From assembly GCF_002210285.1 (NCBI RefSeq), contig NZ_MWQE01000003.1, positions 62,001 to 126,000 on the forward strand: a stretch of 64,000 nt of DNA, written 5' to 3'. Positions 28,268 through 30,634 of the stretch are shown here, piece after piece. This DNA is from Fibrobacter sp. UWR2. Lineage in GTDB: Bacteria; Fibrobacterota; Fibrobacteria; Fibrobacterales; Fibrobacteraceae. Made by a program: the position numbers and the translations under genes. The notes below the pieces were generated by a model. The model searched no databases, was not told where the DNA came from, and saw only the letters and a program-made list of their open reading frames with translations. The stretch's first letter is position 1. Each line of letters begins with the position of its first letter.

Positions 28268-28840
28268 TTAGTTGTAAGTCAACGAAAGCATGAGACTGAA
28301 TCCGTAACCCGACGAGCTGTGTTGCTTTTGGAAATTCTTTATATAGGTGAATGCAATGGCTCCGCCAAGTCCCCATTCGTAGCCTACCCACCATTCCTTA
28401 CCGACTTCCGCTTCCAATCCGATGCCCTTGTTCTTTTCCTTGAAATCAAAATTGGCATCGAGTGCTGAACTTGTCTGGACGAAGCCGACGGAAAAACTGA
28501 AGAAGACATTGGCGGGAGTGTAGTGTGTGGCTCCGGCGCCGAAGAGTATCGAAGTGATGCCGTCGATGGGATAGGTGTCGCCTTCGTAAGAAAGTTCATT
28601 TTCGTTTTCGATGCTGAGAACTGTGAAATGAACAATCATGTCGGGGCTGAACGCGGCCCCAATTTTCATGTCAAATTCCGAAGCGACTCCGTCAATTTCC
28701 ATTTCCCTGTTGCCGCTCCTGATTTTATAATCCTGGTAGCCGGCTCCAACGGCATAGTTCATAAAGAACCCGTCGTGGGTGTGCGGCTCGGCTGCCGCTA
28801 GTGCTGTTAATGCGGACAATGCTGTAATGAATTTCTTCAT
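28268..28840 (-). CDS. Small outer-membrane beta-barrel protein in the radical SAM operon
   Basis: The 190-residue product has a signal peptide (KKFITALSALTALAAAEP) and a series of amphipathic strands with Gly/aromatic ends (NYAVGAGYQDYKI, GFVQTSSALDANFDF, YGFSLMLSLTYN), with the terminal aromatic-rich strand typical of outer-membrane barrels of about eight strands. ATG 28840 lies 2 nt after the stop of the radical SAM gene, so it is translationally coupled to it; a start at 28861 would overlap. It is the third gene of the operon and may anchor or receive the lipoprotein product. No family is recognised. Confidence 0.75.
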   Translation of the reverse strand: MKKFITALSALTALAAAEPHTHDGFFMNYAVGAGYQDYKIRSGNREMEIDGVASEFDMKIGAAFSPDMIVHFTVLSIENENELSYEGDTYPIDGITSILFGAGATHYTPANVFFSFSVGFVQTSSALDANFDFKEKNKGIGLEAEVGKEWWVGYEWGLGGAIAFTYIKNFQKQHSSSGYGFSLMLSLTYN

Positions 28841-28841
28841 T

Positions 28842-29918
28842 TTAGACGCCGGCATTTTCAAGGCGTTTCACGTGGCAGTAGGCGAGTTCCTTGGTTTTCT
28901 CATCGCGCAAATGCAGGCTCGAACCTTCGCAGTAACGCCAGTACTTGCATTTCCGGCATTCGCCAATCCGGGCCCAGCTGCGGTCACGCATCACCTGGTA
29001 GCGGTTCTGCCACACGTCCCACAGGTCGTCCTTGTAGATGTTGCCCTGTATGTAGTCGCCGCGCAGGCTCGGGCATGCCGAGATGCTGCCGTCGCAGAGC
29101 ACGGAGGCGATGTTCACGCCCGCCCAGCAGAAGAACGGCTGGTCACGCACGATCTTCTCGTAGTTGCCGAGGAATCCTTCGCAGTCGTAGTTCACGTTGA
29201 TCATGCCCTGCTTCTTGGCTTCGCGAATGAACTCGAATGTCTGGCGGAATTCGTCGTTCGTGAGCATGAACAGCGGGTTATCTTTCGCGCGGCCCTTCGG
29301 GAACACGTTCGAGACTCTCCAGCGCTTCACTCCGAGGTTAACGAGCAGGTTGTGGATGCGGGGGAGTTCGCCCAGGTTCTTCTTGTTTACGCACGTCATC
29401 ACGTCGAAGGTGAGTTCGTCGACACTTGCCGCCATGTGGATAGCGCGCACGGCGCGTTCGAAACTGTGTGCGTTTCCGCGGAAAAGGTTATGGTTCTCTT
29501 CCAGCCCGTCAAGGCTGATGGTAAGCGAGCGGAGCCCAGCATTCATCAGGTTGGTGAATCGCTCGGGTGTGAGCGCGAGTCCGTTAGTGACCATGCCCCA
29601 CGGGTAGCCGCGCATCTTGATTTCCCTGCCGCATTCCTCGAGGTCGGCGCGCATCAGGGGTTCGCCGCCGGTAATCACCACGGCAAAGTTCCTGGGGTCG
29701 ATGTGCGGAGCGAGCCCGTCGAGTACCTTCATGAAGTCTTCGCGGGGCATGTCCGGGATAGCGTCGGCGACGCAGTCGCTTCCGCAGTGCTGGCAATGCA
29801 GGTTGCAGCGCAACGTGCATTCCCAAAAGAAATACGTTAGCGGGTGCGCCTTTATCTCGTTATGGCGATACAGGCGGTGCGCTTCGAGCGCGAGTCTTTT
29901 CTTGAGTCCAAGATGCAT
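28842..29918 (-). CDS. Radical SAM/SPASM enzyme of a lipoprotein-associated system
   Basis: This 358-residue enzyme has the radical SAM cluster motif CNLHCQHC (C38, C42, C45) within HPLTYFFWECTLRC, GGEP at ITGGEPLMR for SAM binding, and a C-terminal SPASM region with Cys in SVLCDGSISACPS and CRKCKYWRYC for two auxiliary Fe-S clusters. SPASM enzymes usually modify peptides. The N-terminus strongly recalls the Bacteroidota rSAM/lipoprotein family (TIGR04133 as I remember it). Its start overlaps by TGATG with a cryptic TGA after the upstream lipoprotein gene, so translation is coupled. The likely substrate is the KYGV-repeat lipoprotein just upstream. Confidence 0.9.
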   Translation of the reverse strand: MHLGLKKRLALEAHRLYRHNEIKAHPLTYFFWECTLRCNLHCQHCGSDCVADAIPDMPREDFMKVLDGLAPHIDPRNFAVVITGGEPLMRADLEECGREIKMRGYPWGMVTNGLALTPERFTNLMNAGLRSLTISLDGLEENHNLFRGNAHSFERAVRAIHMAASVDELTFDVMTCVNKKNLGELPRIHNLLVNLGVKRWRVSNVFPKGRAKDNPLFMLTNDEFRQTFEFIREAKKQGMINVNYDCEGFLGNYEKIVRDQPFFCWAGVNIASVLCDGSISACPSLRGDYIQGNIYKDDLWDVWQNRYQVMRDRSWARIGECRKCKYWRYCEGSSLHLRDEKTKELAYCHVKRLENAGV

Positions 29919-29929
29919 CAGACGCCGTA

Positions 29930-30634
29930 CTAGGTTTCGTCCTTTGTGGCGCCATCATCAGTGTCAACCGGCCCGCAGATATCGCTCGGGCACCCGTACA
30001 GGTCCACGGCTCCGTCCAGGATGTTGTACTTGGACTGGAATTCTGCGTAGTTGTAGACCTTGCCGTCATCGCACTTGTAGGTTGTCTCCTTGATGTAGAC
30101 GACTCCGTACTTGGCACAAACTTGGTCGCCGGTGCATTCCGGGGTTTGTGCGGTTTCGGTAACCTCTTCCGTACAGTTGAGACCGTCTTCGCAGGTGATT
30201 TTTTTGCCCTTCCGTTCGCAGGTGTACATCACTCCGTACTTGGGCGCAATCGACTCGCTGCTGGAACTGGGGGCGATGACGCCATACTTTGCGGCAATCA
30301 TTTCGCTGCTGGAACTCATTGTCACGCCGTACTTGGGGGCAATTATTGTACCGCTGGACATTGGTACGCCGTACTTGGGCGCAATCATTTCACTGCTGGA
30401 ACTCTTGGCTTTTGAACTGGAACTTGCGACATTCGGGCTGTCGCCGGAAGAACTGCCTTCCTCCTCTGTTGCGGAACTGGATTCCTGCCCGCCCGTTGCG
30501 GAACTGGAGGAGGGTTTCTCGATGGAGGAACTGGATGGGGAGTCTTCGGATGCCGAAGACGGGTCGCTGTCACAACTGGCCCAGAAGAAACCGGTGAGAG
30601 CCAGCAAGATTTTTTTCCAGTGCTTGTATAACAT
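29930..30634 (-). CDS. Lipoprotein with five KYGV repeats, putative radical SAM substrate
   Basis: This 234-residue lipoprotein has lipobox WASC (Cys21), a Ser-rich linker (22-80), then KYGV motifs at 87-90, 101-104, 116-119, 132-135 and 175-178. The first four sit in units such as SSSSEMIAPKYGV; the fifth is in a Cys-containing domain (CERKGKKITC, CTEEVTE, CTGDQVC). Repeats of a Tyr-Gly motif beside a SPASM radical SAM enzyme suggest multi-site modification of Tyr or a neighbour. Start ATG 30634 has GAGGG upstream. The stop is TAG at 29932-29930; the next in-frame codons read Tyr-Gly-Val-TGA, so the gene may have lost a terminal KYGV by one substitution. Confidence 0.85.
   Translation of the reverse strand: MLYKHWKKILLALTGFFWASCDSDPSSASEDSPSSSSIEKPSSSSATGGQESSSATEEEGSSSGDSPNVASSSSKAKSSSSEMIAPKYGVPMSSGTIIAPKYGVTMSSSSEMIAAKYGVIAPSSSSESIAPKYGVMYTCERKGKKITCEDGLNCTEEVTETAQTPECTGDQVCAKYGVVYIKETTYKCDDGKVYNYAEFQSKYNILDGAVDLYGCPSDICGPVDTDDGATKDET

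What the first reader, a model, noticed from the sequence alone, without database searches (positions are those of the whole stretch)
28268..30634. Radical SAM/SPASM operon with a lipoprotein carrying five KYGV repeats
Seen: three coupled minus-strand genes encode a lipoprotein with five KYGV motifs (87, 101, 116, 132, 175), a SPASM-type radical SAM enzyme (CNLHCQHC plus extra Cys sets) and a small outer-membrane barrel. Known: SPASM enzymes modify peptides, often at repeated core motifs, and Bacteroidota have rSAM/lipoprotein pairs of unknown product (TIGR04133/TIGR04134 from memory). Inference: the enzyme modifies the Tyr or its neighbours in each KYGV of a surface lipoprotein, and the barrel helps display or export it. 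A multi-site, repeat-based surface modification in Fibrobacter would be new.
Basis: partly seen in the sequence, partly recalled or inferred. Interest (0 to 1): 0.85.

Follow-up and report, generated by a model that had tools for sequence, protein, structure and literature searches.

The report
Backbone-splicing enzyme for surface lipoproteins
A gut bacterium carries an enzyme next to a surface protein studded with six Tyr-Gly sites, and the same pairing of enzyme with Tyr-Gly sites across three bacterial phyla suggests the enzyme cuts pieces out of the protein backbone there, leaving reactive sites that in related peptides block proteases.

Summary
A lipoprotein (30634-29930, minus) with five KYGV sites, plus a sixth missed YG (Y213, DLYGCP), is coupled to a radical SAM/SPASM enzyme (TIGR04133, 599 bits, cutoff 425) and a small barrel gene. 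The YG sites are no accident: 210 of 216 distinct lipoproteins of this signal-peptide family around about 100 Fibrobacter enzyme loci carry YG (578 seen, 110 expected by shuffling, z=47; control lipoprotein-like ORFs z=1). Lipoproteins beside Bacteroidota/Treponema enzymes nearly all carry XYG[V/T/S/C]P. X varies; Y and G barely do. A sister Fibrobacter enzyme sits beside a zinc-ribbon protein with [I/L]YGPP in 8 of 8 loci. The PlpX-type family (TIGR04103) sits beside a Nif11 peptide with LYGLP and groups with TIGR04133 (88/89). [quoted passage not shown] I read the enzyme as a multi-site lipoprotein splicease. The target motif is strongly supported; the chemistry is inferred; a protease-trap function is speculative. 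The barrel is not a conserved part (3 of ~97 loci), and the lipoprotein is not TIGR04134. Scott et al. 2022 (Chem) was not readable, so priority is unchecked.

The parts
29930..30634 (-). Lipoprotein, 234 aa, lipobox FFWASC, Ser-rich linker, six XYG sites: predicted multi-site substrate
30371..30373 (-). Tyr88 codon of IAPKYGVPMS (site 1)
30329..30331 (-). Tyr102 codon of IAPKYGVTMS (site 2)
30284..30286 (-). Tyr117 codon of IAAKYGVIAP (site 3)
30236..30238 (-). Tyr133 codon of IAPKYGVMYT (site 4)
30107..30109 (-). Tyr176 codon of VCAKYGVVYI (site 5; Y and G invariant in 31 relatives)
29996..29998 (-).
29918..29932 (-). TAG stop followed in frame by TAC GGC GTC TGA (YGV stop); the TGA overlaps the rSAM ATG. 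Several orthologues read through to a C-terminal PLYGI
28842..29918 (-). TIGR04133 radical SAM/SPASM enzyme, 358 aa: predicted lipoprotein splicease
28268..28840 (-). Small predicted outer-membrane barrel, 190 aa; adjacent here but not conserved with the system

Best explanation
The enzyme is a lipoprotein-directed relative of the PlpX splicease. Before export it acts on the unfolded lipoprotein at each X-Tyr-Gly, removes the tyrosine except for its carbonyl (tyramine excision, -135 Da per site) and joins that carbonyl to the carbonyl of X. [quoted passage not shown] Here X is Lys five times and Leu once. The lipoprotein is then exported and lipid-anchored with a row of electrophilic ketoamides on a flexible Ser-rich stalk. 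The most likely use is binding, and probably inhibiting, proteases whose S1 pocket fits X. Shown here: the conserved enzyme-XYG pairing, Y/G invariance with variable X, and the shared clade with PlpX-type enzymes. Inferred: the chemistry. Speculative: the protease-trap role.
For: TIGR04133 membership. YG z=47 in 216 Fibrobacter lipoproteins against z=1 in 210 control ORFs; YG[VIACPTSL]P 224 against 3.4 expected. Motif [PA]-X-Y-G-[VIACP]-[PV], X = L45 K15 E10 D10 A6 %, matching published PlpXY tags PIRPLYGLPI and AVAAGYGVVFP (PMC10533398). In 62 Bacteroidota lipoproteins with median column identity 0.35, Y is 0.97 and G 0.98 while X is M/E/V/C. Treponema CYGMP. The zinc-ribbon neighbour of the sister enzyme has [I/L]YGPP in 8/8. 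TIGR04103 Nostoc enzyme beside Nif11 core SIALYGLPPELF. Tree: XYG-associated enzymes on one side of a branch, 88/89; shared HCGS, W200, R258 absent or rare in outgroups. Unlinked lipoproteins of the same signal family also carry XYG. XYG can direct several splicings in one precursor, and the products inhibit proteases (PMC10373908; PMC11117315).
Against: No PlpY/RRE partner seen (weak test) and no Nif11/NHLP leader. The SPASM domain lacks the sixth cysteine that PlpX-like enzymes have, and has an extra Cys246. HMM scores to TIGR04103 are little better than to AhbD/NirJ2. Branch support is moderate. No product measured. G031 lacks TIGR04133 yet has two lipoproteins with XYG.
Confidence: 0.68

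Rival explanations
1. The enzyme acts at XYG but does different chemistry (C-C or C-O crosslink of Tyr, thioether to a nearby Cys, epimerisation or hydroxylation) and leaves the backbone intact.
For: SPASM enzymes do all of these; the closest solved structures are SkfB, SuiB, anSME and PqqE; the auxiliary-cluster cysteines differ from PlpX-like enzymes; many Fibrobacter motifs have Cys nearby (CPEYGI, CLYGP, LYGCP).
Against: The motif is contiguous X-Y-G with X free, there is no conserved second partner residue, and it occurs in unrelated carriers exactly as in PlpX-type precursors.
Confidence: 0.22
2. XYG is only a recognition tag or an unmodified binding motif; the enzyme modifies another residue or another substrate.
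For: No product has been measured; six of 216 family lipoproteins have no YG; G031 has XYG lipoproteins without the enzyme in its assembly.
Against: Y and G are among the most constant residues while X and most flanking positions vary, and the same dipeptide is found beside related enzymes in unrelated protein folds.
Confidence: 0.07
3. The KYGV repeats are chance or a simple duplication in a low-complexity linker, with no link to the enzyme.
For: The region is Ser-rich and repeat number varies between relatives.
Against: Shuffle and control tests, synonymous codon differences between repeats, and three-phylum conservation.
Confidence: 0.03

Closest known systems
PlpX/PlpY splicease and spliceotides (PlpX family IPR026482; TIGR04103 used here as its nearest accessible representative)
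   Same: Radical SAM/SPASM enzyme paired with X-Y-G sites, +2 Pro/Val, several sites per precursor allowed, one clade in the tree.
   Different: Substrates are exported lipoproteins instead of Nif11/NHLP peptides; no PlpY/RRE found; no sixth SPASM cysteine; up to eight sites in one protein.
TIGR04133/TIGR04134 rSAM-lipoprotein pair of Bacteroidota
   Same: The enzyme is a full TIGR04133 member; the partner is a lipoprotein; both kinds of partner have XYG.
   Different: The Fibrobacter lipoprotein does not match TIGR04134, has no hit to the CarboxypepD_reg-like domain seen in TIGR04134 members, and carries many sites where theirs mostly carry one or two.
GDL-motif/DUF1843 peptide maturases (TIGR03913)
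   Same: Same enzyme clade; DUF1843 peptides carry PYG/LYG near the N-terminus.
   Different: Small peptides without a lipobox; some have YM or YA in place of YG.
FibroRumin rSAM peptide system (recalled from memory, not tested)
   Same: An rSAM maturase in Fibrobacter.
   Different: A peptide precursor system; no hit to it appeared among the 25 best families listed for this enzyme.

Membership tests
TIGR04133 radical SAM/SPASM protein | HMM score over the curated cut-off of 425 bits | tested here: met
   598.7 bits, full length
TIGR04133 radical SAM/SPASM protein | Encoded beside a lipoprotein | tested here: met
   Window and Fibrobacter loci, Bacteroidota and Treponema
TIGR04134 rSAM-associated lipoprotein | HMM score over 39.8 bits | tested here: not met
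   No hit for the window lipoprotein; no genome of the genus over the cut-off; Bacteroidota and Treponema partners do hit
PlpX-type splicease system | Radical SAM CxxxCxxC plus SPASM domain | tested here: met
   Pfam Radical_SAM and SPASM, fold
PlpX-type splicease system | Adjacent substrate with X-Y-G sites | tested here: met
PlpX-type splicease system | Enzyme in the PlpX-type clade | tested here: inconclusive
   Grouped with TIGR04103 at 88/89, but PlpX itself was not on hand and HMM bits do not single out TIGR04103
PlpX-type splicease system | Partner RRE protein PlpY | tested here: inconclusive
   No PlpY-like hit in the genome by sequence; fold-level search not possible
PlpX-type splicease system | Nif11/NHLP leader on the precursor | tested here: not met
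   Precursor has a lipoprotein signal peptide and no family hit
PlpX-type splicease system | Tyramine excision, -135.08 Da per site | not testable with these tools
   Needs mass spectrometry

The most novel reading that the evidence does not exclude
Fibrobacter dresses its surface with lipoproteins whose backbones are spliced at up to eight X-Tyr-Gly sites, giving membrane-anchored multi-headed alpha-ketoamide protease traps whose specificity is set by X (Lys, Leu, Glu, Asp, Ala) and diversified by gene duplication; the same splicing enzyme family modifies lipoproteins with one or two sites in gut Bacteroidota.
Probability: 0.3. Interest if true: 0.9.

Novelty: new variant of a known kind. Interest (0 to 1): 0.74.

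Why it matters
TIGR04133 is listed in NCBIfam only as a hypothetical equivalog with no product. A concrete, one-experiment prediction (-135 Da at each XYG) would give a chemistry to a widespread gut enzyme family, extend backbone splicing from small peptides to lipid-anchored surface proteins, show multi-site splicing of one natural protein, and suggest a cell-surface protease-inhibitor layer in rumen and gut bacteria. The enzyme may also be useful as a splicease that needs no PlpY.

Tried and rejected
Barrel as a partner: tblastn over all loci found homologues in only 2 others, not adjacent. TIGR04134 membership of the Fibrobacter lipoproteins: below cut-off in all 80 genomes; the weak hits lie mostly in long open frames. 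KYGV as a Lys-specific motif: X is free. Co-occurrence as proof: 39 of 40 near-complete genomes have an enzyme match (one, G028, only through the distant form) and 39 of 40 have a match to the lipoprotein signal profile; G028 has neither TIGR04133 nor the lipoproteins, but G031 has XYG lipoproteins without the enzyme, so this stays suggestive. Solved-structure searches for a splicease relative gave no splicease. Literature: no paper with TIGR04133, TIGR04134, or ketoamide + radical SAM + lipoprotein; Scott et al. 2022 is not held. Promoter/terminator scan was at chance level. The Tropicibacter enzyme was put in the XYG group by homology only; no XYG ORF was found near it.

Full report
What is there. 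On the minus strand at 30634-28268 lie a 234-aa lipoprotein, a 358-aa radical SAM/SPASM enzyme and a 190-aa predicted barrel, separated by 11 and 1 nt. The enzyme scores 598.7 bits to TIGR04133 (cut-off 425), has Pfam Radical_SAM and SPASM domains, and an AlphaFold model of mean pLDDT 90.6 closest to SkfB and SuiB by Foldseek and to SuiB (Z 26.2, rmsd 3.5, 315 aligned) and anSME (Z 25.7, rmsd 3.1, 311 aligned) by VIA-align. The lipoprotein hits no NCBIfam family and only below-threshold Pfam matches. It has five KYGV and one DLYGCP; the five KYGV differ at synonymous codons.

Same genome and genus. The genome has a second enzyme (82% identical) beside three more lipoproteins with XYG (EYGV, LYGV, LYGP, DYGI, LYGA, EYGI), so there are 12 XYG sites in four lipoproteins. 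A signal-peptide profile finds only these four strongly in the genome. In the genus, 71 of 80 genomes have the enzyme over the cut-off, often twice. I took up to about 7 kb each side of these loci and collected 216 distinct lipoproteins of the signal family (an [W/F]KK-type start and/or a FW.[SG]C lipobox). 210 carry YG; YG is the most over-represented common dipeptide (578, 5.2 fold). Against shuffles z=47; for 210 other lipobox-like ORFs of the same loci z=1.0. The motif is [PA]-X-Y-G-[VIACP]-[PV] with X mostly L, K, E, D, A. In one aligned family of 31 (median column identity 0.48) the Y of two sites is invariant while X is K/D/A/E/L. Lipoproteins of the same signal family encoded on other contigs or far from any enzyme also carry XYG, so action in trans is likely.

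Beyond the genus. A scan of species genomes returned 80 Bacteroidota loci, joined by plasmid hits in Phocaeicola, Parabacteroides and Treponema. Of 68 close lipoproteins, 97% have YG and 87% have YG-x-Pro (x from a small set) in the first 60 mature residues; aligned, Y is 0.97 and G 0.98 conserved at a median of 0.35. The three examples tested hit TIGR04134. A divergent Fibrobacter enzyme clade (35-38% identical) is followed in 8 of 8 loci by a protein with [I/L]YGPPI, a double-zinc-ribbon protein in the one tested and without a visible export signal. The Nostoc TIGR04103 enzyme stands beside a Nif11 peptide ending SIALYGLPPELF; GDL/DUF1843 peptides have PYG or LYG; an Agathobacter relative has an ORF ending MYGTGVRM. 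A maximum-likelihood tree places all these on one side of a branch against 13 other radical SAM enzymes (88/89). Support is moderate, sampling of outgroups is small, and one member (Tropicibacter) was included by homology only.

Mechanism. [quoted passage not shown] PMC11002830), that XYG can direct several splicings in one precursor (PMC10373908), and that the products are protease inhibitors (PMC11117315). The tags used for PlpXY, PIRPLYGLPI and AVAAGYGVVFP (the latter a GYG design), fit the Fibrobacter motif at -2, +1 and +2. From this I infer tyramine excision in TIGR04133 systems. Differences that caution: no PlpY found (weak), no RiPP leader, and a different auxiliary-cluster cysteine set (Cys246 gained, sixth SPASM cysteine lost). 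That TIGR04103 is PlpX's own family is my reading of the Nif11 context and the motif; PlpX itself was not on hand. The protease-trap role rests on the literature on spliceotides and on the P2 Pro/Ala, P1 X pattern; it is speculative.

The barrel is not part of the conserved system. The lipoprotein is not TIGR04134. The motif is XYG and the system spans three phyla.

Novelty. A lipoprotein-directed, multi-site member of the splicease kind would be a new variant of a known kind. The title of Scott et al. 2022 includes proteins, and I could not read it; it may already list TIGR04133.

Noticed in passing
window 29932-29916: In frame after the lipoprotein's TAG stop the DNA reads Tyr-Gly-Val-stop and that stop overlaps the enzyme's ATG; several orthologues end in PLYGI with the stop touching the enzyme start, so this strain seems to have lost a C-terminal XYG site to a nonsense codon.
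   Followed up: partly
L145:4622-5011 and L222: In Treponema and Tidjanibacter the X of XYG is the predicted lipidated lipobox Cys itself (TSC-YGMP, TAC-YGIE), so splicing would alter the lipid-bearing residue.
   Followed up: no
L174, L198, L214: Mini lipoproteins of 46-50 aa with a single MYGCPP or MYGVV site next to Bacteroidales enzymes.
   Followed up: no
L115-L122, gene after the enzyme: Zinc-ribbon protein with an invariant [I/L]YGPP beside a divergent TIGR04133 relative: a possible intracellular splicing substrate.
   Followed up: partly
L230:2674-6365: Tropicibacter PlpX-like enzyme lies in an operon with a trypsin-like peptidase and an M23 peptidase, without a visible XYG ORF.
   Followed up: no
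G031 (L275, L277): A 99% complete genome without TIGR04133 keeps two lipoproteins with XYG: recent loss, assembly gap, or counter-example.
   Followed up: partly
L148, L229, L231: DUF1843 peptides beside GDL maturases have YG in some copies and YM or YA in others.
   Followed up: no
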